Source of the DNA: Diphasiastrum complanatum
Lineage: Eukaryota; Streptophyta; Lycopodiopsida; Lycopodiales; Lycopodiaceae
Length of the DNA: 64,000 bases
Direction of reading: 5' to 3'
Assembly (NCBI GenBank): GCA_029204225.1
Contig: CM055094.1
Location: forward strand, 20,137,489 to 20,201,488
The notes beneath the pieces are model-generated. The model was not told the DNA's origin. It did no database searches and saw only the letters and a list, made by a program, of their open reading frames with translations. Numbering within the stretch: the first letter of the stretch is position 1; each line of letters starts with the position of its first letter. Made by a program: the position numbers and the translations under genes. Positions 6,501 to 61,064 of the stretch are shown here, in pieces.

Positions 6501-7258
6501 CTATGTATGTAAGCAAATGTTGCAGAACATTACAAAAAGTCACAATATCATGCTTTACTGCGATGCTGCCATGCATGCTTTTAGGAAATGCAAACAAACT
6601 CTGATGGGAGAAGATTTGATGCTGGCACTTCCTTCTTCAGGCATGGAAATGGAATTCAGAAGCTTTGAAAAGCTTTAGCTTCAAAGGATTGATTTTCCAT
6701 CTTTTAGTGGCGATCTATCATTTGCTGCGACCATGCTTGATTACTCCTTCGCATCCTTGGACACCATCTACATACATCCACCATGGATCCAGAGCATCAT
6801 CATCATCCATTTTCAAAAACCCTAAGCTGCCGAGATCTGCTACATTACACAAAAATCGTCACATCTAGCATGAGCCAAATGCTGAGGGGTAGTGCTACTG
6901 GAGCTTGTCAAAACCACACATTCAACATCGATTTGGGTTGAAAGCTCTCTACTAGTACGTTATCGCGAAGAAACATCATCGTTTCCACACCCTATCAAAG
7001 AGACATTGCTCCAAATTCTTCCACAAATTTCTAGTCTCCATACACTGCCGAGCAATACTCTACATACACTACTCATAGAGCTGAGCCCCCATACTCTGCA
7101 ATCACCGTGGACCGAGCCAAACGTCCATACTATGCATTCACTGTGGACCAAGCTGAGCGTCCATACTCTGCATACAAAGTTGACTAAGCCGAGTCCATCA
7201 AAAGTCGACCAATCCGAAGCCCTCCACAGTCGATCGAGCCGAGACTCCACTTGTAAAT
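6500..7258 (+). repeat. module S, copy 2, with 36-bp coding minisatellite
   Basis: Module S carries three tandem 36-bp units at about 7,087-7,190. In one frame they read PYSA(I/F/Y).VDRAE(R/S), that is 12 residues per unit. Two other frames are also open through much of the module, so the true frame is not certain. The module ends at CCACTTG and is fused to gypsy sequence at about 7,256. The same fusion is seen at 39,160 and 45,995. Confidence 0.6.
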
Positions 7259-7545
7259 AGATTTTAAAAACCATACTATGGTATTTAAAGATAAGTTTGA
7301 CCAGATAGTCTATATTTATGGGGAGACTAATGTATTCCCATCATCGATGGTTTGCTCAGCGGAAGTTATGGAAAAACTACATGATTCTAAGTATGAGCTT
7401 TTTCATCTTGTTTTGAAATCTCGTATGCATTGTGATGTGAATGTGTTAACATGCTTTAACACCAAAAATTAGCATCAAGAACAGCTTTCAATGCAAGATT
7501 TAAAACAAGAGTTCAATGATGCTTTTCCTAAATAGGTAAGATTTT
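7259..7545 (+). pseudogene. Ty3/gypsy connector fragment (module G2)
   Basis: Same connector as at 1,605-1,905: frame 7,278-7,472 then a TAG, and further conserved codons up to the remnant of the EFNDAFPK box. It lacks six bases (two Asp/Asn-type codons) present in G1. No reverse transcriptase follows. Confidence 0.65.
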
Positions 7546-15900: not shown

Positions 15901-16084
15901 GGTTGATAAGTTGGATTCACATTTACATCATGAAGCAAATAGTCTTGTAAGTTTTGTGTTCAAGTGGATCGAAAGCTCGTTCCAATGGATGTTGAGATTA
16001 ATATATCATGCTATCTCTAGCCTAACAGCCACACACTAGATGTTTGGATCCAGAAAATATTCACACAAAGGGACATCACACATC

Positions 16085-17341
16085 AATATTAATCTACTTT
16101 CAGAATTAATGGCGTCTACCGGTTGGAGATCTCCAGTCCTCAAAGATACACACGTGAATGAAAGGCTTGAGCAAGCACCAAAGCAAGTCCAGAATGATCC
16201 TTCTTTCGGCCCAAGATTTCATAGAAGACGAGCATGGAGATCGGAAGACAACATATCAGCATATCCTTGCAACTTTGCGATAATAGATGGCTCGTTCTCT
16301 TCTCAGAAGGAATGTCATACATCAATCAATAATTTTTGGGAACTGAGTTTCGATTCTCGCGATCCTACAATCCAGCTACAACACAAGTTCTGCCAGTTTT
16401 TGATGACTGTCATGGGCCAAAGGTTTGAGCAAGATCCACAATTTTCCATCAATCTCCTTCACATGGAGGATACCAGGATCTATTTATGGATTCAATACTT
16501 TCCTGCAGACTCCATACATATCTTCGAAGAGATGTGCACTTCAGGATTTATCATCAATGATGAGGGTTACATGTACACCCAGAGATCAAAAGCATTTACT
16601 GGTCGAAGACAAATACTGACTCGAAACTGCTTCAACTGGCTACGTGAGCAAAATCATAAGCATGCCAATAAGTCGACTCTGATAGGACGAAAAGACGGGG
16701 ACAAGTCAGTTCCAACGACGACATCTAATTCGACCGGGAGCTCTTCTCAGCCAGATTTAATTGCGTCGACCGGTTGTAGAGCTCCATTCCTCAAAGATAC
16801 GTACGTCTATGAAATGCTTGATCAATCACCAAAGCAAATTCAGAATGATCCTTCTTTCGACCCAAGTTTTCGTAGAAGACGAGCGCTAGCATGGAGATCG
16901 GAAGACAACATATCAGCATATCCTTGCAACTTTGCGATAATAGATGGCTCGTTCTCTTCTCAGAAGGAATGTCATACATCCATCAAGAATTTTTGCAAAT
17001 TAACTTCCGATTCTGACGATCCTACAATCAAGCTACAACACAAGTTCTGCCAGTTTCTGATGACTGTCATGGGCCGAAGGTTTGAGCAGGATCCATAATT
17101 TTTCATCAATCCCAAAAAACCGGTGCTTCAGATGGAGGATACCAGGATCTATTTATGGATACAATACTTTCCTGCAGACTCCATACAAATCTTCGAAGTG
17201 ATGTGCAATTCAGGCTTTATCATCAATGCTGATTAGGCTTACACCCAGAGATCAAAAGCATTTGCTGGTCGAAGACAAATGCTGACTCAAACCTGCTCCA
17301 AGTGGCTGCGCGAGCAATATCATAAGCATGATGCCCACTAA
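16085..17341 (+). pseudogene. gene K copy 1: unidentified tandem-domain protein
   Basis: The product is not recognised. It consists of two copies of a domain of roughly 185 residues (starting MASTGWRSPVLKDTH and IASTGCRAPFLKDTY) separated by a Ser/Thr-rich linker with GRKDGDKSVPTT. Conserved words in both domains are DPSF.P.F.RRR, WRSEDNISAYPCNFAIIDGS, QHKFCQFLMTVMG.RFEQDP and RSKAF.GRRQ. The frame is open from 16,040, but the first 60 bases are copia leader, so the N-terminus was lost at the junction. Stops at about 17,096 (CAA to TAA compared with K2) and 17,234 (AAG to TAG) disrupt the second domain. K2 and K3 are related copies. Confidence 0.55.
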
Positions 17342-17890: not shown

Positions 17891-19137
17891 TCTACCGATT
17901 GGAGAGCTCCAATCCTCAAAGATACGCACGTGAATGAAAGGCTTGAGCAAGCACCAAAGCAAGTCCAGAATGATCCTTCTTTTGACCCAAGATTTCGTAG
18001 AAGACGAGCATGGAGATCGGAAGACAACATATCAGCATATCCTTGCAACTTTGCGATAATAGATGGCACGTTCTCTTCTCAGAAGGAATGTCATACATCA
18101 ATCAATAATTTCTGGGAACTGAGTTCCGATTCTCGCGATCCTACAATCCAGCTACAACACAAGTTCTGCCAGTTTCTGATGACTGTCATGGGCCAAAGGT
18201 TTGAGCAAGTCCACAATTTTCCATCAATCCCAACAAAGCGGTCCTTCACATGGAGGATACCAGGATCTATCTACGGATTCAATACTTTCCTGCAGACTCC
18301 ATACATATCTTTGAAGAGATGTGCACTTCAGGATTTATCATCAATGCTGATGAGGGTTACATGTACACCCAGAGATCAAAAGCATTTACTGGTCGAAGAT
18401 AAATACTGACTCGAAACTGCTTCAACTGGCTACGTGAGCAAAATCATAAGCATGCTAGTAAGTCGACTATGATAGGACGAAAAGACGGGGACAAGTCAGT
18501 TCCAATGACGGCATCTAATTCGATTGGGAGCTCTTCTCAGCCAGATTTAATTGCGTCGACCGGTTGGAGAGCTCCATTCCTCAAAGATACGTACGTCTAT
18601 GAAATGCTTGATCAATCACCAAAGAAAATTCAGAATGATACTTCTTTCGACCCAAGTTTTCGTAGAAGACTAGCGCTAGCATGGAGATCGGAAGACAACA
18701 TATCAGCATATCCTTGCAACTTTGCGATAATAGATGGCTCGTTCTCTTTTCAGAAGGAATGTCATACATCCATCAAGAATTTTTGCAAATTAACTTCCGA
18801 TTCTGACGATCCTACAATCAAGCTACAACACAAGTTCTGCCAGTTTCTGATGACTGTCATGGGCCGAAGGTTTGAGCAGGATCCACAATTTTTCATCAAT
18901 TCCAACAAACCGGCGCTTCACATGGAGGATACCAGGATCTATTTACGGATACAATACTTTCCTGCAGACTCCATACAAATCTTCGAAGAGATGTGTACTT
19001 CAGGCTTTATCATCAACGCTGATAAGGCTTACACCCAGAGATCAAAAGCATTTGCTGGTCGAAGACAAATGCTGACTCGAACCTGCTCCAAGTGGCTGCG
19101 CGAGCAATATCATAAGCATGATGCCCACTATTCCTGA
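17891..19137 (+). pseudogene. gene K copy 2: unidentified tandem-domain protein
   Basis: Second tandem copy of K. Domain A (frame from 17,930) is broken by a one-base loss near 18,208, where FEQDPQF becomes FEQVHNF; the remainder reads in another frame. Domain B with its linker, 18,469-19,137, is fully open (222 codons) and is the best preserved K domain in the window. It ends KWLREQYHKHDAHYS and a TGA. The two domains repeat at about 664 bp. No signal peptide or membrane segment is seen. The conserved Arg-rich DPSF.P.FRRR and the GRRQ element suggest a basic, perhaps nucleic-acid-associated protein, but that is a guess. Confidence 0.55.
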
Positions 19138-21915: not shown

Positions 21916-23050
21916 CCACTCAAGCCTACATGGCAGACCCACGTGGTATAGTTTAGTTGGCTTGCCACACAAGCCTATGTCAAGCCTATATGGCAGACTG
22001 CAACATACCAGCATGAACATACTAGCATCAAGCCTATATCATGCCTATATGACCTACCACACAAGCCTATGATAGGCCTACATGGCTTGCCACATGGCAA
22101 GTCCCAAGCCTATGTGGTTTATCTCATGACATGCCTGCATGGCTTGCCACATGGCAACTTGGGAGCTCCAGCTCTCTCTCTCTAGCTCCACTCAAGCCTA
22201 CATGGCAGAGCTTGGTTGGCTTGCCACACAAGCCTATGGCAAGCCTATGTGGTATCCTGTGACATGCTTACGTGGGAAGCATAAAAAATATGCCATGCCT
22301 ATGTGGCCTGCCATGCAAGCCTATGGCTTATCTCATGACATGCCTACATGGCTTGCCACATGGCAACTTGGGAGCCCCAGCTCTCTCTCTCTCTAGCTCC
22401 ACTCAAGCCTACATGGCAGAGCTTGGTTTGCTTGCCACACAAGCCTATGGCAAGCCTATGTGGTAGCCTGCGACATGCTTACGTGGGAAGATTAAAAAAT
22501 ATGCCATGCCTATGTGGCCTGCCATGCAAGCCTATGGTAGGCCTGTATGGTTTGCCAAGTGGCATCTTTTGAGCCCACTTATATATATATATATATCTCT
22601 AGGTCCACTCAAGCCTACGTGGCACAGGGCTCAGTTGGCTTGACATACAAGGTTATGGTAGGCCTACATGGCTTGCCACATGGCAACCCTCAAGCCTCAT
22701 GGCTTGCCACATGGCAACTTGGGAGCCCCAGCTCTCTCTCTCTAGCTCCACTCAAGCCTACATGGCAGAGCTTGGTTGGCTTGCCACACAAGCCTATGGC
22801 AAGCCTATGTGGTAGCCTGCAACATGCTTATGTAGGAAGCATCATAAACATGCCATGCCTATGTGGCCTGCCACGCAAGCCTATGGTAGGCCTGTGTGGT
22901 TTGCCAAGTGGCAACTTTTGAGCCCACCTATATATATATAGATCTCTAGGTCCACTCAAGCGTACGTGGCACAGGGCCCAGTTGGCTTGACATAAAAGGT
23001 TATGGTAGGCCTACATGGCTTGCCACATGGCAACCCTCAAGCCTGCATGA
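21913..23050 (+). repeat. CATGG-rich degenerate tandem array, left arm
   Basis: An array of short degenerate units built on GCCTACATGGCTTGCCACA and TTGCCACATGGCAA. The arms TTGCCA and TGGCAA of the second word are inverted repeats around two bases. Higher-order units of roughly 200-300 bases, each with a short CT run (AGCTCTCTCTCTC), are visible from 22,130 to 22,930. Open frames occur across it (for example 22,547-22,921) but change frame between units, so coding is unlikely. Related arrays: 30,190-30,600, 51,290-51,715, 61,005-61,579, 62,110-62,514. Confidence 0.75.
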
Positions 23051-23458
23051 TTTGCCATGTGGCATACCGTTGTCATAGGTGTTTCGAAACCTCATGACAA
23101 GAAGCATGTCCTTGGGCATCAGTGTCACCCTCTTGCCATGAATGGAACACAGCATCGAATCCTCAAACAATTTTGTCTGGAAGTCCTCGTATGCAATATG
23201 GAGGGCCTCCAATGCAGCAATATTCCACCTCACTGCATAGGGCAGATGGGTTGTCATATCTTGTGTAATCTCCCTCACAGCCCGGTACAAGGCTGCTTTC
23301 AGGATCACAAGTTTGGTGTACCTCTACAAGGCCCTGATGTCCCTCAACCATGGACGACGAGGTCTTCCGCATCTTTGCGGACGTATGGGTTCAGATGTCT
23401 GGAGACGGGACAATTGAACAAAATGGGTAAGCCTAGCAGTTTGCTTCGTCCGAGCCAT
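23000..23458 (-). pseudogene. CENH3-like histone H3 variant, left-arm copy
   Basis: The frame starts with ATG and MARTKQTAR, the H3 tail signature with Lys4; the residue at position 9 is Leu. A short tail (about 35 residues) leads into a histone fold: LRDIRAL at 38-44, a longer first loop than in canonical H3 with a Trp (VRWNIAALEAL), then LFEDSMLCSIH and RVTLMPKD. The extended loop with Trp and SMLC.IH..RVTLM are features of plant CENH3 rather than canonical H3. Codon 45 is TAG (23,324-23,326) where the right copy has CAG. The frame runs on into CATGG-array sequence after about residue 130, so the C-terminus is foreign. No intron interrupts the fold, unlike typical plant CENH3 genes, which suggests a retrocopy. 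Confidence 0.7.
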
Positions 23459-23594: not shown

Positions 23595-24593
23595 TGGGGT
23601 AGGAAATTGTTTTATATGTACTTGTCCAAATGCCTCTTTGATAATTTCAAACATTGTGTCATATGCATCCCTGCTAATACCAGAATAATCACATGATCCT
23701 TGTATCAATTTTCGGTCAATGGTCTTGCCGACTTCACCCATAAGTGCCTCTGCAATCTTGGGCTTGATTCGAGAATATCGTTGATTTCCAAGTAGACTCG
23801 TCGTTGACTTGGCTGTAAGTACTGCACTCAAAGACTTTCCAATCATGTCCTGTTCTTTCAGATTTTCATTGGTGACTAAAGCTGCTCTGCAAAATAAAAA
23901 TAAGATTTAGAAAAAAACAATTCACAACCATTGATGTGCTAGATGAAACAAAACACATGAATAGTTTAAAACACAATCCTACTTGAAAGCATATATTCTT
24001 TTTTTCCGTTGAGCCCCACTTGTTGAGAGCTCGTCAATAGTTTTTAAAATAACTCTTTTTCGCTTATTGTTCAGTATTTTCTTCCGTAATGTGTTTACTT
24101 CTACATTTATTTGACAATATGAGGTACACAATGTTTGTACAATTAGTTTCATATTGTCAGTTTCTTGGTTAAGGTTTAATATAATATCTTGCAAACGAGG
24201 ATTATCTATTTTCAAGATTTCATTTTCTTCTTTTGTTTGCAAAAAAAAATTTCTTTTTCTCGGTAGTCAGTAAGCAAACCATTCAACATATTTTCCAAAC
24301 AGTGGATTTTTTTTCATTGAATAACTAATGCCATAACTTTTCAATCTTTCACAATAATCCACTAGACTATCGTGTCCTTCACACGAAAACAATATGAGTT
24401 GCGTGACCGATCTAAAATTTGGATGTTGCATTGAGCTTGGATCGATTGGATACAAACATCCATCAACCCATAGATCATAATGTTTCCTGTCTTTCGTCCT
24501 TTGGTGAGCTGGTAAGGTGGATCCTTTCAGATTCTTTCTCGACAGTGGAGCATATTCTATGGGAAGATCAATATGGACATGATATTTAGACAT
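23595..24593 (-). pseudogene. gene Q, left-arm copy: unidentified multi-exon gene, truncated
   Basis: Product not recognised. It starts at ATG 24,593 (MSKYHVHIDLPIEYAPL) and runs 108 codons to a TGA at 24,267. It then continues in the same frame with a Lys/Glu/Asn-rich, likely coiled-coil segment (ENEILKIDNPRLQDIILNLNQE; 24,242-23,993). A 106-base intron is well supported: donor CAA|GTAGGA at 23,992 and acceptor TTTTGCAG at 23,887. Joining the exons keeps the frame (IYAFK then AALVTNENL). Exon 3 reads on through KSLSAVLTAKSTTSLLGNQRYS and CDYSGISRDAYDTMF to about 23,597, where it is fused to the CENH3 leader. Unlike the right copy, exon 3 has no stop before that point. Confidence 0.55.
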
Positions 24594-24609
24594 CTTAATA
24601 ATCGATAGA

Positions 24610-25060
24610 TTAATCTAGTAGAAAACCCACTTGTTATATATCTTGTAAGCTATTAAAACTCGTCTTAATTATAAAAAAAAATAATTGTAAAAGTTTGAAA
24701 TGACCTTGGCGCTCTTTTTGATCCATCACACTCATGTTTCTTGCCTTATATGCAAAATCAAAGCTTTGTAGTTATGAGCAAAGTAAGCAAAATATTTTTT
24801 CAATAGATTTGTGTCGAAATTGCAAATTTTGAATTGCAAAAGTTTGAGATAACCTTGCCACTCCATTTGATCCAACACACTCCATATTTTCATAATTTCA
24901 AAAATTTAGATTCACGTTGGCGCTCATTGTGATCCAAAATATTCAAAGTTTCTTGCCATGATTTGCAGATCGATAAGACTATTTTTCTTTGATGTGAACG
25001 CTTTAGTAGATGGAAAGAAAACTTTGATGTGCAATACGATTTGCATTTACATGAGAAGTC
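24610..25060 (-). repeat. module E, upstream region of gene Q
   Basis: Non-coding or weakly coding region between P and Q, also at 31,540-31,960 (minus), 49,920-50,360 and 57,620-58,160. It contains diverged internal repeats around GGATCA with (C/G)AA(G/C)GT words; in one frame these read LDQMERQG.F and MDQKE.QGHF. It could hold the Q promoter, but no clear TATA box was found. Confidence 0.45.
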
Positions 25061-29259: not shown

Positions 29260-30168
29260 CTAGATACATATCAAGCTACCCCAAGTTACCACAAACCTAT
29301 TATATGAGTTAAACACGGGTCTATATGAGGCAAGGTGTATATATTGCAAAAAGCAAAAAGGAAGGTCTCCCCTTTTATCATATTTGGACAGATGTGTACA
29401 ACCGGTAATTGGGTTAAAGGTAATTGTAATATTCAGAAAGTTCACCAAATTACATGTGTTGTCGTTTCCGCCTATCTCAAGGTATTCCAGGGGATAGATC
29501 CAAAAAGGATTGTCAGGTGTTCTTGGTTGAGTCTTGTCTAGGAAACGTCCAACCTTATGATTATTGATAAAGCATATATCGTCAATGTACCTGAACGAAT
29601 ATTTGAAGTCGTTTATAAATTTAATTTCCCCTAATCTTGCAAGCCTCTTAATAAACTGCATTTTCAAAAAATAAAAGTACCAATTACAAGACACTGGTGA
29701 ATATGAAAAACCCATTGGTATTTTCCCGACCTGTCGCCAAGTATGATCCCCAAGTCTGATAATGCAATTGTCTATCAAATAGGAATTCCAAATGCATAAG
29801 GTATTCTTGCGGTCTATAGTACTCCATTCATATGAACCTGTATTTTTCGAAACCCATTTAAAATCATTGGTTCCAGATAGTCGTTTGTATTTGAGCAATT
29901 TGATTTTGGCAATCGAACAAATCATTTTAGTCATAATAGTTTTCAAATCGTCAATCCTGTTCAAAGAAATATTGCTTTTTTGGGGGTAACCTAATTCTTT
30001 GCTTGCTGGTTTTTTGAGTTTGTAATGTAATTTCAGGCTGAAATTTTCAGCACACAAGGCTTGTAGGAGGGCGCGTTCCTGCATCCATCTAATGTGTGGT
30101 TTCGACACATTTTGGTGCTGATTTTTTAGATTTGATACTTGTTGTTTTTTGTGTCTTTTAGGGCACAT
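29260..30168 (-). pseudogene. reverse transcriptase of the YIDD, non-LTR (Penelope/TERT-like) kind, defective
   Basis: A 302-codon ATG frame. Visible motifs: IPMGFSYSP at 150-158 (motif B' type), FRYIDDI at 192-198 (catalytic motif C), IYPLEYLEI at 224-232, and SKYDKRGDLPF at 261-271. The last resembles the Y.KR.D.. element after the palm in a YIDD family known from animals and protists. The metal-binding Asp of motif A should lie in a DFSTMY-like segment before NIPL; here that place reads GYPQKSNISLN with no Asp, so a deletion has removed it. The last 12 residues come from module T'. One of two adjacent Gly residues before PMG is Lys here. Enzyme activity is not expected. Confidence 0.7.
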
Positions 30169-41558: not shown

Positions 41559-42947
41559 TCAGGAATAGTGGGCATCATGCTTATGATATTGCTCGCGCAG
41601 CCACTTGGAGCAGGTTTGAGTTAGCATTTGTCTTCGACCAGCAAATGCTTTTGATCTCTGGGTGTAAGCCTTATCAGCATTGATGATAAAGCCTGAAGTG
41701 CACATCTCTTCGAAGATTTGTATGGAGTCTGCAGGAAAGTATTGTATCCGTAAATAGATCCTGGTATCCTCCATGTGAAGCGCCAGTTTTTTGGGATTGA
41801 TGAAAAATTGTGGATCCTTCTCAAACCTTCGGCCCATGACAGTCATCAGAAACTGGCTGAACTTGTGTTGTAGCTTGATTGTAGGATCGTCAGAATCGGA
41901 AGTTAATTTGCAAAAATTCTTGATGGATGTATGACATTTCTTCTGAGAAGAGAACGAGCCATCTATTATCGCAAAGTTGCAAGGATATGCTTATATGTTG
42001 TCTTCCGATCTCCATGCTAGCGCTCGTCTTCTACGAAAACTTGGGTCGAAAGAAGGATCATTCTGAATTTGCTTTGGTGATTGATCAAGCATTTCATAGA
42101 CGTACGTATCTTTGAGGAATGGAGCTCTCCAACCGGTCGACGCAATTAAATCTGGCTAAGAAGAGCTCTCGATCGAATTAGATGCCGTCGTTGGAACTGA
42201 CTTGTCCCCGTCTTTTCGTCCTATCACAGTCGACTTACTGGCATGCTTATGATTTTGCTCACGTAGCCAGTTGAAGCAGTTTCGAGTAAGTATTTGTCTT
42301 CGACCATTAAATGCTTTTGATCTCTGGGTGTACATGTAACCCTCATCAGCATTGATGATAAATCCTGAAGTGCACATCTCTTCGAAGATATGTATGGAGT
42401 CTGCAGGAAAGTATTGAATCCGTAAATAGATCCTGGTATACTCCATGTGAAGGACCGCTTTGTTGGGATTGATGGAAAATTGTGGATCTTGCTCAAACCT
42501 TTGGCCCATGACAGTCATCAGAAACTGGCAGAACTTGTGTTGTAGCTGGATTGTAGGATCACGAGAATCGGAACTCAGTTCCCAGAAATTATTGATTGAT
42601 GTATGACATTCCTTCTGAGAAGAGAACAAGCCATCTATTATCGCAAAGTTGCAAGGATATGCTGATATGTTGTCTTCCGATCTCCATGCTCGTCTTCTAC
42701 GAAATCTTGGGTCGAAAGAAGGATCATTCTGGACTTGCTTTGGTGCTTGCTCAAGCCTTTCATTCACGTGCGTAACTTTGAGGACTGGAGCTCTCCAACC
42801 GGTAGACGCCATTAATTCTGGCTGAGAAGAGCTCCCTATCAAATTAGATGCCGTCGTTGGAACTGACTTGTCTGCGTCTTTGCATCCTACTAGAATCGAA
42901 TTACTGATATCATGTGCCTCCAAATCTCTTCCGCATATAGATTTCAT
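41559..42947 (-). pseudogene. gene K copy 3: unidentified tandem-domain protein
   Basis: Two domains as in K1 and K2, at 666-bp spacing. The first domain plus linker is open for 263 codons (42,947-42,156). An extra linker (DADKSVPTTASN, SSSQPE) precedes it, showing that the original protein had at least one more repeat upstream. The frame is broken by TAG at about 42,157 (CAG in K2), by TAA near 41,990 (TCA in K2) and by a length difference. The last domain is open at 41,846-41,559. This copy also retains an upstream coiled-coil exon. Confidence 0.6.
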
Positions 42948-51792: not shown

Positions 51793-52712
51793 ATGTGCCC
51801 TAAAAGGCACAAAAAATAGCAAGTATCAAATCTACAAAATCAGCACCAAAATATGTGTCGAAACCACACATTAGATAGATGCAGGAACTCGCCCTCCTAC
51901 AAGCCTTGTGTGCTGAAAATTTCAGCCTGAAATTTCGTTACAAACTCAAAAAACCAGCAAGCAAAGAATTAGGTTACCCCCAAAAAAGCAATATTCCTTT
52001 GAACGAGATTGACGATTTGAAAACTATTATGACTAAAATGATTTGTTCGGCATTTAAAATTGCCAAAATCAAATTGCTCAAATACAAACGAATATCTGGA
52101 ACCAATGATTTTAAATGGGTTTCGAAAAATACAGGTTCATATGAATGGAGTACTATAGACCGCAAGAATACCTTATGCATTTGGAATTCCTATTTGATAG
52201 ACAATTGCATTATCAGACTTGGGGATCATACTTGGCGACAGGTCGGGGGAATACCAATGGGTTTTTCATATTCACCAATGTCTTGTAATTGGTACCTTTC
52301 TTTTTTTTAAATGCAGTTTATTAAGAGGCTTGCAAGATTAGGAGAAATTAAATTTATAAACAACTTCAAATATTCGTTCAGGTACATTGACGATATATGC
52401 TTTATCAATAATCATACGGTTGGACGTTTCCTAGACAAGACTCAACCAAGAACACCTGACAATCCTTTTTGGATCTATCCCCTGGAATACCTTGAGATAG
52501 ACGGAAACGACAACACATGTAATTTGGTGAACTTTCTGAATATTGCAATTACCTTTAACCCAATTACCGGTTGTACACATATGTCCAAATATGATAAAAG
52601 GGGAGACCTTCCTTTTCGCTTTTTGCAATATATACACCTTGCCTCATATAGACCCGTGTTTAACTCATATAATAGATCTGTGGTAACTTGGGGTAGCTTG
52701 ATTTGTATCTAG
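51793..52712 (+). pseudogene. reverse transcriptase, right-arm copy, defective
   Basis: Equivalent of 29,260-30,168. It begins ATG CCCTAAAAGG region near 51,793, hits a stop after about eight codons, and has a two-base insertion (CAAAATATGTGTCG) and another stop before the open part 51,879-52,310. That part carries VGGIPMGFSYSP, with both Gly kept, and ends at TAA after YLSFF. The frame resumes at 52,311-52,712 with FRYIDDI, IYPLEYLEI and SKYDKRGDLPF. Like the left copy it lacks the motif A Asp and ends in module T' sequence. This copy keeps three residues (AFK) lost in the left copy. Confidence 0.7.
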
Positions 52713-58160: not shown

Positions 58161-58183
58161 AGATTAATCTATCGATTATTAAG

Positions 58184-59791
58184 ATGTCTAAATATCATCT
58201 CCATATTGATCTTCCCACAGAATATGCTCCACTATTGAGAAAAAATCTGAAAGGATCCACCTTACCAGCTCACCAAAGGACGAAAGACAGGAAACATTGT
58301 AATCTATGGTTTGATGGAAGTTTGTATCCAATCAATCCAATGTCAATGCAACATCCAAATTTTAGATCGGTCACACAACTCATACTGTTTTTGTGTGAAG
58401 GACACAATAGTCTATTGGGTTATTGTGAAAGATTGAAAAGTTATGGCATTAGTTATTCAATGAAAAAAAATCCACTATTTGGAAAATATGTTGAATGGTT
58501 TGCTTACTGACTACCGAGAAAAAGAAACTTTTTTATGCAAACAAAAGAAGAAAATGAAATCTTGAAGATAGATAATTCTCGTTTGCAAGATATTATATCA
58601 AACCTCAACCAAGAAACTGACAATATGAAACTAATTGTACAAACATTGTGTACCTCATATTGTCAAATAAATGTAGAAGTAAACACATTACGGAAGAAAA
58701 TACTGAACAATAAAAGAAAAAGAGTTATTTTAAAAAGTATTGACGAGCTCTCAACAAGTGGGAGTCAACGGAAAAAAAGAATATATGCTTTCAAGTAGGA
58801 TTATGTTTTAAACTATTCATGTGTTTTGTTTCATCTAGCACATCAATGGTTGGAATTGTTTTTTTCTAAATCTTATTTCTATTTTGCAGAGCAGCTTTAG
58901 TCACCAATGAAAATCTGAAAGCAAGGACATGATTGGAAAGTCTTTGAGTGCAGTACTTACAGCCAAGTCAACGACGAGTCTACTTGGAAATCAACGATAT
59001 TCTCAAATCAAGCCCAAGATTGCAGAGGCCCTTATGGGAAAAGTCGGCAAGATCTTTGACTGAAAATTGATACAAGGAGCATGTGATTATTCTGGTATTA
59101 GCAGGGATGCATATGACACAATGTTTAAAATTATCAAAGAGGCATTTGGACAAGTACATATAAAACAATTTCCTATTCCTCGGCCCTTTCAAATCAAATT
59201 AGAGAGGGATGTCTTAAACATGGGTATGAAAAACATCATTGGTATTCCTTACCATATCAATGAAATTTATAACTCAAAACATGGCACTTTGTCATATGAT
59301 TCTACCAACAATATGTTTGTAGATCTAAATCATTTATAGAGATTTATTGTAAAGTTTTATGGAATCATGAATGGAACATTAAGCAATACGATAAACTCAG
59401 AGAGTCTTAATTTCAGTGTGCAGTCCGAAAATAATATTTGGTGGTTGGCAGCTTTCCAGGTTTAAATCTATTCTATTGAGTACTAGCAACTAATTCATTT
59501 CGAGAATTAATGGTTTTGTGTTTTAAGCTAATATTGTTTTGTTATTATAGGTCTGAGTTCAATTCTCTTAAAATAGTTCATGATTTTGTGTTTCAAACAA
59601 GTTTTAAAGAAGATCATAAAATTCTATTTTGGATTTTTAGTAAAACAGAATATCCAGAGATAATTAAGAATCATATGAGCGACACACCACTCAATGTTCC
59701 TAGAATAGGTGATTTTAAGGTGGAATGGTATTTGGTTCACACACCAAGAGCTACAGGGAGTGAAAATCCAAAACTTAGCGAAATGTTTTAA
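58184..59791 (+). pseudogene. gene Q, right-arm copy: unidentified multi-exon gene
   Basis: Longest copy of Q; product not recognised. Exon 1-2 frame: ATG 58,184, TGA 58,508-58,510 (also in the left copy), then in the same frame the coiled-coil-like segment to 58,794. Intron 58,795-58,889: donor CAA|GTAGGA, acceptor TTTTGCAG. Exon 3 runs 58,890-59,459 (KSLSAVLTAKSTTSLLGNQR, KYYSGISRD-type region CDYSGISRDAYDTMF, FQIKLERDVLNMGM, FSVQSENNIWWLAAFQ). It is broken by a one-base loss near 58,924, TGA near 59,060 and TAG near 59,337. A probable second intron starts GTTTAA at 59,460. The last part contains FKEDHKILFWIFSKTEYPEI and PRIGDFKVEWYLVHTP and ends at TAA 59,789. It may be the N-terminal part of a mobile-element protein; that is a guess. 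Confidence 0.55.
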
Positions 59792-60285: not shown

Positions 60286-60605
60286 CTGGGGATTGTATAG
60301 GTTTTCGCGTAATTTGCTGTCATGTTTGATTGCTTCCATACGACCTGCATGCGTGATATTGCCGTCATGCGAGCGACCTCGTCCCCAGGCCTATTCCTGA
60401 CACCCTCTCACGTCGTAGCGATATCAGCCTGACTTTCCCAGTATCACCATCATGCAAGCCCCTGCCTCTGCCCGCCTGTCTTTGCCACTCTCTCGCGTTG
60501 TAACGATATCACCCTTAGAGTTCTCAGTGTCACCATTACGCGAGATAATTTAGCTCTCTCTTCTGTTGTATCTTCGTCCTCGCATGGTATAGATATCCGA
60601 CCTCA
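60286..60605 (+). other. 5' leader of the CENH3-like frame
   Basis: Less AT-rich than its surroundings and relatively rich in CpG. Contains two related segments, starting near 60,405 (CTCTCACGTCGTAGCGATATC) and 60,490 (CTCTCGCGTTGTAACGATATC). Pyrimidine-rich before the ATG. Probably an untranslated leader carried along with the captured histone gene. Confidence 0.45.
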
Positions 60606-61064
60606 ATGGCTCGGACGAAGCAAACTGCTAGGCTTACCCATTTTGTTCAACTGTCCCGTCCCCAGACATCTGAACCCATACGTCTGCAAAGACGCGGAAG
60701 ACCTCGCCGTCCATGGTTGAGGGACATCAGGGCCTTGCAGAGGTACACCAAACTTGTGATCCTGAAAGCAGCCTTGTACCGGGCTGTGAGGGAGGTTACA
60801 CGAGATATGACCACGCATCTCCCCTATGCAGTGACGTGGAATATCACTGCATTGGAGGCCCTCCATATTGCATACGAGGACTTCTAGACAAAATTGTTTG
60901 AGAATTCGATGCTGTGTTCCATTCATGGCAAGAGGGTGACACTGATGCCCAAGGACATGCTTCTTGTCATGAGGTTTCGAAACACCTATGACAACGGTAT
61001 GCCACATGGCAAATCATGCAGGCTTGAGGGTTGCCATGTGGCAAGCCATGTAGGCCTACCATAA
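60606..61064 (+). pseudogene. CENH3-like histone H3 variant, right-arm copy
   Basis: ATG frame of 152 codons with one internal TAG at codon 94 (60,885-60,887; CAG in the left copy). N-terminus MARTKQTAR with Lys4 but no Lys9, a short Pro/Arg-rich tail (RRGRPRRPW at 29-37), then LRDIRALQRYTKLVI (alpha-N and alpha-1), an extended loop 1 with Trp (VTWNITALEAL), and SMLCSIHGKRVTLMPKD (loop 2 and alpha-3 start). Compared with canonical H3, loop 1 is about four residues longer, a CENH3 feature, as is SMLC in place of TNLC. From about residue 131 the frame enters the CATGG array (MPHGKSCRLEGCHVA). CENH3 replaces H3 in centromeric nucleosomes; this copy should not encode a full fold unless the stop is bypassed. 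Confidence 0.75.

What the first reader, a model, noticed from the sequence alone, without database searches (positions are those of the whole stretch)
60606..61064. CENH3-like histone frame carried in both arms of a repeat block
Seen: MARTKQTAR start, histone-fold helices, Trp-containing extended loop 1, SMLCSIH..RVTLMPKD. Known: a longer loop 1 and the SMLC.IH..RVTLM wording are typical of plant CENH3, not canonical H3. Inference: a CENH3 gene or its cDNA was captured by a repeat and multiplied. Capture of a centromere histone by mobile DNA would be unusual and could yield decoy or small RNAs against the host gene.
Basis: partly seen in the sequence, partly recalled or inferred. Interest (0 to 1): 0.8.

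Follow-up and report, generated by a model that had tools for sequence, protein, structure and literature searches.

The report
Mobile element carrying its own histone
The histone-like frame is a worn copy of a histone H3-type gene that belongs to a very abundant mobile element in what appears to be a plant genome, and the element histones read so far lack the one lysine on which plant cells place a main silencing mark on such elements.

Summary
The frame is real: an H3-type fold at 60606-61064, with a 97%-identical inverted copy at 23458-23000. Both window copies carry a stop; 24 of 37 ungapped copies on the same contig are open.

It does not look like a captured host CENH3. The candidate host CENH3 is a separate intron-bearing gene (C3:74.78-74.79 Mb), 30-44% identical to the element histones; the window frame shares no exact stretch over 9 nt with its two exons. 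The frame belongs to a dispersed family (137 non-canonical hits scored; 5560 first-look candidates) linked to an unclassified transposase-like gene: 42 of 137 within 10 kb; 28 of 92 on contigs of known length against 0.13 by chance. In 10 of 11 chosen contexts a partner gene lies beside it.

Fold dN/dS is 0.13-0.29 between lineages of one subfamily. Representatives of seven subfamilies keep key nucleosomal residues; none found has lysine 9.

Best reading: an element-owned H3 variant, perhaps resisting H3K9-based silencing; function is inferred. Nearest precedent: fungal hAT elements with captured H3.

The parts
60606..60995 (+). Window copy of the element's H3-like gene: N-tail (ARTKQTAR, Leu at position 9) and histone fold; TAG stop at 60885-60887
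60996..61064 (+). C-terminal codons 131-152 and stop of the frame, read into the flanking minisatellite-like repeat
23000..23458 (-). Inverted copy of the H3-like frame, 97% identical; TAG at codon 45
60471..60605 (+). Upstream flank of the H3-like frame shared by both arms
59130..59737 (+). Pieces of the element's transposase-like gene (59130-59462 and 59591-59737), same strand, upstream of the histone frame
58166..58621 (+). N-terminal exon piece of the transposase-like gene (43% identical to a relative in L084)
24156..24611 (-). Same N-terminal transposase-like piece in the inverted arm (44% identical to L084)

Best explanation
The frame is a decayed copy of a histone H3-type gene that belongs to a multi-gene mobile element. 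SHOWN: members of the family carry, in recurring order, a transposase-like gene, a second unknown gene (ORFX), often a third ORF with a weak PB1-like look, and the H3-like gene; scored hits lie on all of contigs C1-C23; the histone fold shows purifying selection between lineages of one subfamily and in pooled counts of two others; representatives of seven subfamilies keep nucleosomal contact residues, keep much of the first eight tail residues, and lack lysine 9. INFERRED: the protein is built into nucleosomes on or near the element in place of H3. Lacking K9 and the rest of the H3 tail, such nucleosomes could not take H3K9 methylation (recalled: the plant mark that feeds DNA methylation on transposons) but would keep the K4 end. 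The window copy was then multiplied with its flanks by local segmental duplication and is decaying. The anatomy is much surer (about 0.9) than the silencing step (about 0.3).
For: Linkage: 42 of 137 scored H3-like hits have one of 113 scored transposase hits within 10 kb, 40 on the opposite strand, 38 at 2.5-4.5 kb downstream; of the 92 on contigs of known length 28 do, against a random mean of 0.13 (max 2 in 1000); canonical H3 0 of 13. In 10 of 11 chosen contexts of 8-10 kb at least one partner gene lies beside the histone. Selection: among six cx copies, fold dN/dS 0.13-0.29 in 12 pairs (dS 0.12-0.55) and 0.44-1.32 in the 3 near-identical pairs; pooled pN/pS 0.35 in 12 distinct polyP loci and 0.33 in the window type; window-type fold variants seen in four or more copies are mostly synonymous (12 S: 4 N), the others are not (15 S: 56 N), p 8e-5. 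Residue 9: L in 40 of 40 window-type copies, D or G in 12 of 12 distinct polyP loci with a readable start, D in 6 of 6 cx; E, R, P and L in one locus each of four more subfamilies; K in 13 of 13 canonical H3. Residues 1-8 are identical in window, polyP and L083 types despite 4-5 synonymous codon differences in 8. R69, R83, H113, K115-T118, D123, L126, R129 are kept in 7 of 7 representatives.
Against: No expression, protein or chromatin data. Element ends, terminal repeats and target-site duplications were not resolved. The transposase-like gene matches no Pfam family at its cut-off and no PDB chain, so 'transposase' rests on copy number, linkage and conserved acidic and CxxC motifs. One of 11 contexts (L082) has the histone without partners. 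Contexts were chosen by me and scored hits are the best of thousands, which favours conserved copies and may lower dN/dS. Counting each window-type variant once gives N:S:stop 102:42:5 against 98.8:43.5:6.3 expected, i.e. no constraint; with a cut at two copies the frequency contrast is weaker (17 S: 20 N against 10 S: 40 N, p 0.018), and the fold against tail plus extension is p 0.063. Only 3 of 7 subfamilies have ARTKQTAR exactly; L085 and L086 differ by one residue, L084 has a damaged start, and cx has changes at positions 1, 3 and 7. K9 is also absent from the plant CENH3s I recall, so its loss need not be selected for escape from silencing.
Confidence: 0.6

Rival explanations
1. The element histone works in transposition or target choice rather than against silencing: it pairs with H4 or presents an H3K4-like tail to host readers, so that the transposase complex is tethered to chosen chromatin, or it compacts the excised DNA.
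For: K4-end residues and nucleosomal contacts are conserved; fixed linkage to the transposase-like gene.
Against: No integration-site data; loss of K9 and of the whole remaining tail is not explained by it.
Confidence: 0.25
2. One reading: a host CENH3 gene or its cDNA was captured recently and multiplied as passenger cargo.
For: Intronless frame; loop-1 Trp and longer loop 1 in the window type; A65 in 7 of 7 and P63 in 5 of 7 subfamily representatives, as in three recalled angiosperm CENH3s.
Against: The candidate host CENH3 has R63 and L65 there and 30-44% identity; element rows plus host CENH3 as one group is rejected, p-AU 0.038. Seven divergent subfamilies carry the gene, most with the same partners; purifying selection.
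Confidence: 0.05
3. The gene entered the element anciently from a CENH3 or CENP-A-type histone and still acts as a centromere-type histone, seeding CENH3-like chromatin where the elements lie.
For: Element rows with canonical H3 as one group is rejected, p-AU 0.039; plant CENH3 affinity not excluded (50/79); Trp at position 47 in 6 of 7 representatives as in CENP-A.
Against: Loop 1 has H3 length in 5 of the 7 representatives (alignment); scored hits lie on all of C1-C23 with no sign of one site per contig, though centromere positions are not known here.
Confidence: 0.12
4. Ordinary decay: dispersed retrocopies or segmental duplicates of a histone gene with no role.
For: Window-type copies share flanks (32 of 40 one upstream type, 5 of 40 the other) and variants counted once look neutral.
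Against: Linkage at fixed spacing, partner genes in 10 of 11 contexts, dN/dS 0.13-0.29 between cx lineages, octapeptide kept over synonymous change.
Confidence: 0.08
5. The multi-gene unit is an endogenised DNA virus that brought a viral H3-like histone.
For: Several genes of unknown family plus a histone; viral histones exist (PMC9145170, search listing only).
Against: Two scans of IMG/VR contigs with one transposase and one histone protein found no relative; no viral family in the ORFs scanned with Pfam, though not every ORF was scanned.
Confidence: 0.08

Closest known systems
Histone H3-like 'H3L' carried by hAT DNA transposons in Pyrenophora tritici-repentis and Mycosphaerellaceae fungi (PMC3538342 passages; PMC6710886 abstract, outline and passages)
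   Same: An H3-type gene inside a DNA transposon, amplified from tens to hundreds of copies; without introns in P. fijiensis.
   Different: Fungal; hAT transposase; captured H3, RIP-inactivated in Mycosphaerellaceae. Here: an unclassified transposase-like gene, several divergent H3 subfamilies, further partner genes, signs of selection on the histone between element lineages, lysine 9 absent, first-look candidates in the thousands.
Plant CENH3 / CENP-A
   Same: Divergent H3 fold, rewritten tail without K9, loop-1 Trp in the window type, L084 and L086, A65 and often P63 as in recalled angiosperm CENH3s.
   Different: Multicopy, intronless, dispersed, element-linked; not grouped with the candidate host CENH3; loop 1 mostly of H3 length; several keep QTAR after ARTK.
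VANC anti-silencing proteins of Arabidopsis VANDAL transposons (PMC5735166 abstract and outline; PMC10398659 search listing)
   Same: Analogy only: an element-encoded accessory protein that counters silencing of its own element.
   Different: VANC is a sequence-specific anti-silencing protein, not a histone; no homology claimed or tested.
Pack-TYPE and other gene capture by plant transposons (PMC8903248 search listing; PMC13317346 term search)
   Same: Host-type coding sequence inside plant DNA transposons.
   Different: Pack-TYPE elements are described as non-autonomous; here a full histone gene recurs beside an apparent transposase gene.

Membership tests
Histone H3 fold family (Pfam PF00125) | Match over the curated cut-off (26.4 bits) | tested here: met
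   Inverted copy 57.6 bits; second half of this copy 33.2; first half 26.0, just under; cx, L084, L086 and polyP members 88-98 bits
Histone H3 fold family (Pfam PF00125) | DNA- and dimer-contact residues (R69, R83, H113, R116, T118, D123; roles recalled) | tested here: met
   Kept in 7 of 7 subfamily representatives
Plant CENH3 | Groups with plant CENH3 in a tree | tested here: inconclusive
Plant CENH3 | Longer loop 1 with Trp, then T-x-E-A | tested here: inconclusive
   Window type: longer loop and Trp but N-I-A-A; polyP and L083: H3-length loop, no Trp, but T-A-D-A and T-G-E-A
Plant CENH3 | Intron-bearing, low-copy host gene | tested here: not met
   No intron within the fold and multicopy; the candidate host CENH3 is elsewhere
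Plant CENH3 | Localises to centromeres | not testable with these tools
   Needs ChIP or imaging
hAT elements carrying H3 (fungal type) | hAT transposase domains beside the histone | tested here: not met
   No hAT family in the transposase-like pieces scanned, at E <= 1
DNA transposon | Terminal inverted repeats and target-site duplication | tested here: inconclusive
   Shared edges found (L087:632, L090:42) but no convincing TIR or TSD; only one copy spans both edges
DNA transposon | Dispersed multicopy unit with linked transposase-like gene | tested here: met
   that the linked gene is a transposase is itself inferred

The most novel reading that the evidence does not exclude
A plant transposon superfamily encodes its own nucleosomal H3 variant that lacks lysine 9 but keeps the K4 end, and uses it to build silencing-resistant chromatin on itself: a selfish histone. 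The variant has been kept by selection through the divergence of at least seven subfamilies.
Probability: 0.3. Interest if true: 0.95.

Novelty: new variant of a known kind. Interest (0 to 1): 0.8.

Why it matters
Mobile elements are known to evade host chromatin, but an element lineage that maintains its own H3 variant, lacking the lysine used for heterochromatic silencing, would be a direct molecular way to escape that silencing and would make the question testable with one protein. It also matters for annotation: histone or CENH3 gene counts in such a genome are swamped by element copies, and the candidate host CENH3 is hidden among them. Six literature searches on histone or CENH3 capture and element-borne histones brought up only the fungal hAT cases among the titles and abstract starts listed; four of the six lists were capped (15 of 96, 12 of 273, 12 of 73, 10 of 35 papers), and preprints and most subscription papers are not held.

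Tried and rejected
IMG/VR scans with one transposase core and one histone fold found no relatives. PDB search with the transposase core found nothing. Terminal inverted repeats were sought in three 10-kb contexts and at shared edges without a convincing pair. Identity of the host: the canonical H3s look to me like those of an early-diverging land plant and a homosporous lycophyte was guessed from memory, but one paper search gave no confirmation and a light-harvesting-protein search did not complete, so 'plant' rests on the canonical H3s and the CENH3-like gene. A small-RNA decoy role was disfavoured for the exons at hand.

A variant-spectrum test on the 37 ungapped window-type copies showed no constraint when each variant is counted once; weighting by frequency does show it, and the cut of four copies was chosen after seeing the counts. 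A run stopped with an error after the fold results; its C-terminal-extension table is incomplete and not used. Some loci overlap: L066 lies in L083, L070 in L079, L073 in L080, so counts of polyP loci are given for distinct loci (12, not the 13 rows or the 14). No readable start was found for L077, L078 and L088.

Full report
OBSERVATION. The frame at 60606-61064 (+) encodes MARTKQTARLTHF... followed by an H3-type fold, with a TAG at codon 94. Pfam Histone matches both halves (the first just under the cut-off) and the inverted copy. The inverted copy at 23458-23000 is 97.1% identical over 899 bp and has its stop at another codon. The window is G000:C3:20137489-20201488 of a 1.74-Gb assembly. 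A DNA search scored 40 of 1584 first-look candidates and listed 41 matches: 40 full-length copies at 96-100% identity and one 65-bp piece, all on contig C3 (18.5-21.7 and 29.9-30.2 Mb). Of the 40 copies (refetched; the two window copies included), 32 share the upstream flank of the right arm, 5 that of the left arm and 3 neither fully, so this type has spread locally as duplicated blocks. 37 of 40 are ungapped; 24 of these are open through codon 152 and 13 have internal stops. Variants are densest as C-to-T and G-to-A at CG and CHG sites, as expected of methylated DNA.

A GENOME-WIDE FAMILY. A Pfam Histone search scored 150 of 6325 first-look candidates and gave 13 canonical H3 loci (about 164 bits), then hits of 84-110 bits on the large and many small contigs. 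A rice CENH3 query scored 150 of 5560: the same 13 plus 137 others, which lie on all of C1-C23 (not C24) and on small contigs (by my hand count 98 of the 137 have no stop in the matched stretch). The thousands are first-look candidates, not confirmed copies. Reading loci showed several subfamilies: 'polyP' (open frames up to 417-440 codons, long acidic and polyproline linker), 'cx' (about 331 codons, C-terminal extension), L083 (which contains L066), L085, L084, L086 and the window type. I did not read all 137.

THE HISTONE TRAVELS WITH OTHER GENES. tblastn in five 10-kb contexts and the window and six 8-kb contexts found a transposase-like gene, an unknown ORF ('ORFX') and an ORF with a weak PB1-like match ('ubl') around the histone. 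Of these 11 contexts (L079-L089, chosen by me from the hit lists), 10 have at least one partner and one (L082) has none; ubl is in 7 of 11. Where the parts are present the order is ubl, H3, then convergent ORFX and transposase in polyP, L085 and L083, and transposase, inverted ORFX, H3, inverted ubl in cx (L081), L084 and in part L086. The window keeps only transposase pieces (58166-58621, 59130-59462, 59591-59737) upstream of the histone. A genome search with the transposase core scored 113 of 13,775 candidates. Comparing places, 42 of 137 H3-like hits have a scored transposase hit within 10 kb, 40 on the opposite strand, 38 at 2.5-4.5 kb downstream. For the 92 hits on contigs of known length, 28 were observed against a random mean of 0.13 (maximum 2 in 1000). 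Canonical H3: 0 of 13. The transposase-like pieces match no Pfam family at its cut-off and no PDB chain; 'transposase' is an inference.

SELECTION. Among six cx copies fold dN/dS is 0.13-0.29 in 12 pairs (dS 0.12-0.55) and 0.44, 0.86 and 1.32 in the three near-identical pairs; pooled pN/pS in polyP copies is 0.35 (0.35 for 12 distinct loci and 0.30 with three more). In the window type pooled pN/pS is 0.33 in the fold, 0.69 in the tail and 0.64 in the extension. Fold variants seen in four or more copies are mostly synonymous (12 S: 4 N), the rest are not (15 S: 56 N), p 8e-5; with a cut at two copies p is 0.018, and fold against tail plus extension p is 0.063. Counting each variant once gives no departure from expectation. 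Read together, this is the usual pattern of a gene constrained while elements are active and neutral after insertion. The scored copies are the best-scoring of thousands, which can bias dN/dS down.

WHAT IS KEPT. R69, R83, H113, K115-R116-V117-T118, D123, L126 and R129 are unchanged in one representative of each of 7 subfamilies (contact roles recalled). The tail octapeptide ARTKQTAR is identical in 36 of 40 window-type copies and shared by window, polyP and L083 types with 4-5 synonymous codon differences among 8 codons (6-8 against one host H3). L085 and L086 have ARTKQTTR, cx has DRRKQTRR, and L084 has KQTAR after a damaged start. Position 9 is L (40 of 40 window-type), D or G (12 of 12 distinct polyP loci with a readable start), D (6 of 6 cx), E (L083), R (L085), P (L086), L (L084), and K in 13 of 13 canonical loci.

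NOT THE HOST'S CENH3. An exon with [35 protein letters not shown] and a GT donor lies at C3:74791650-74791760 (-), 47 bits, below the 13 canonical loci and one further 77% hit that I did not read (C11:49645893), and ten bits above the next hits. The best genome hit for the next rice CENH3 stretch is 9.9 kb downstream on the same strand, C3:74781657-74781731, VREISSQFSTDVTRWTAEALICIQE between AG and GT; its E-value alone (0.39) is weak, and position, splice sites and the RWTAEAL wording carry the case. I call it the candidate host CENH3; a third exon was not reached. Against this: over the 60 residues read it is as close to host H3 (66%) as to rice CENH3 (66%), and it does not group with the plant CENH3s in the best tree, though such a group is not rejected (p-AU 0.316). 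Element histones are 30-44% identical to it and 38-45% to host H3 over 54-59 columns. All 12 element rows form one side of a branch (87/91, short of the tool's star); with the candidate CENH3 alone p-AU 0.038; with canonical H3 p-AU 0.039; with all plant CENH3s undecided (50/79). The longest exact match of the window frame to the two exons is 9 nt and to canonical H3 loci 11 nt.

MECHANISM. Shown: linkage, dispersal, signs of selection, retained contacts, absent K9. Inferred: incorporation into nucleosomes and resistance to H3K9-based silencing. CENH3s that I recall also lack K9, so loss may reflect a rewritten tail rather than escape. The retained K4 end argues that the tail is used.

KNOWN WORK. 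Fungal hAT elements carry captured H3: two forms, 10 and 16 copies, in the P. tritici-repentis reference (PMC3538342, passages) and 784 H3-like copies in P. fijiensis, RIP-inactivated (PMC6710886, abstract, outline and passages). Plant VANDAL elements encode anti-silencing proteins of another kind (PMC5735166, abstract and outline). A review of plant gene capture has no occurrence of 'histone' (PMC13317346, term search). Passages of a paper on plant CENH3 evolution (PMC11687628) added nothing on element-borne copies. Six searches listed no plant element with its own histone; four lists were capped, only titles and abstract starts were seen, and preprints and most subscription papers are not held.

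Noticed in passing
window 29260-30168 (-) and 51804-52712 (+): ORF pair (88% identical in protein) whose wording recalls a Penelope-like reverse transcriptase; the first had no Pfam match at E <= 1, and the name is recalled only.
   Followed up: partly
window 16040-17329, 17891-19119 (+), 41577-42899 (-): Unknown repeated ORF (about 210-aa unit, 70-93% identical between copies in protein) with no Pfam family over its cut-off.
   Followed up: partly
window 1-64000: The window is a mosaic of highly similar blocks in direct and inverted order (163 inverted pairs of 150 bp or more).
   Followed up: partly
L080:4303-4465, L083:5360-5561: A long hairpin lies between the convergent histone and transposase-side genes in two subfamilies that are about 44% identical in the fold; possibly a shared terminator.
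   Followed up: no
L087:1165-1518, L079:2153-2506, L089:1530-1805, L081:7815-8078, L084:6534-6887: A fifth recurring ORF (MASTQSRKPKNQL...) with a BAH-domain look by eye but no Pfam support.
   Followed up: partly
G000:C11:30.68-31.04 Mb and 50.37-51.80 Mb: Canonical H3 loci on C11 occur in two groups about 20 Mb apart with matching open-frame lengths; a segmental duplication or an assembly duplicate.
   Followed up: no
L083:4887-5204 and 6971-7345: Two different H3-like frames lie about 2 kb apart, apparently nested or adjacent elements.
   Followed up: no
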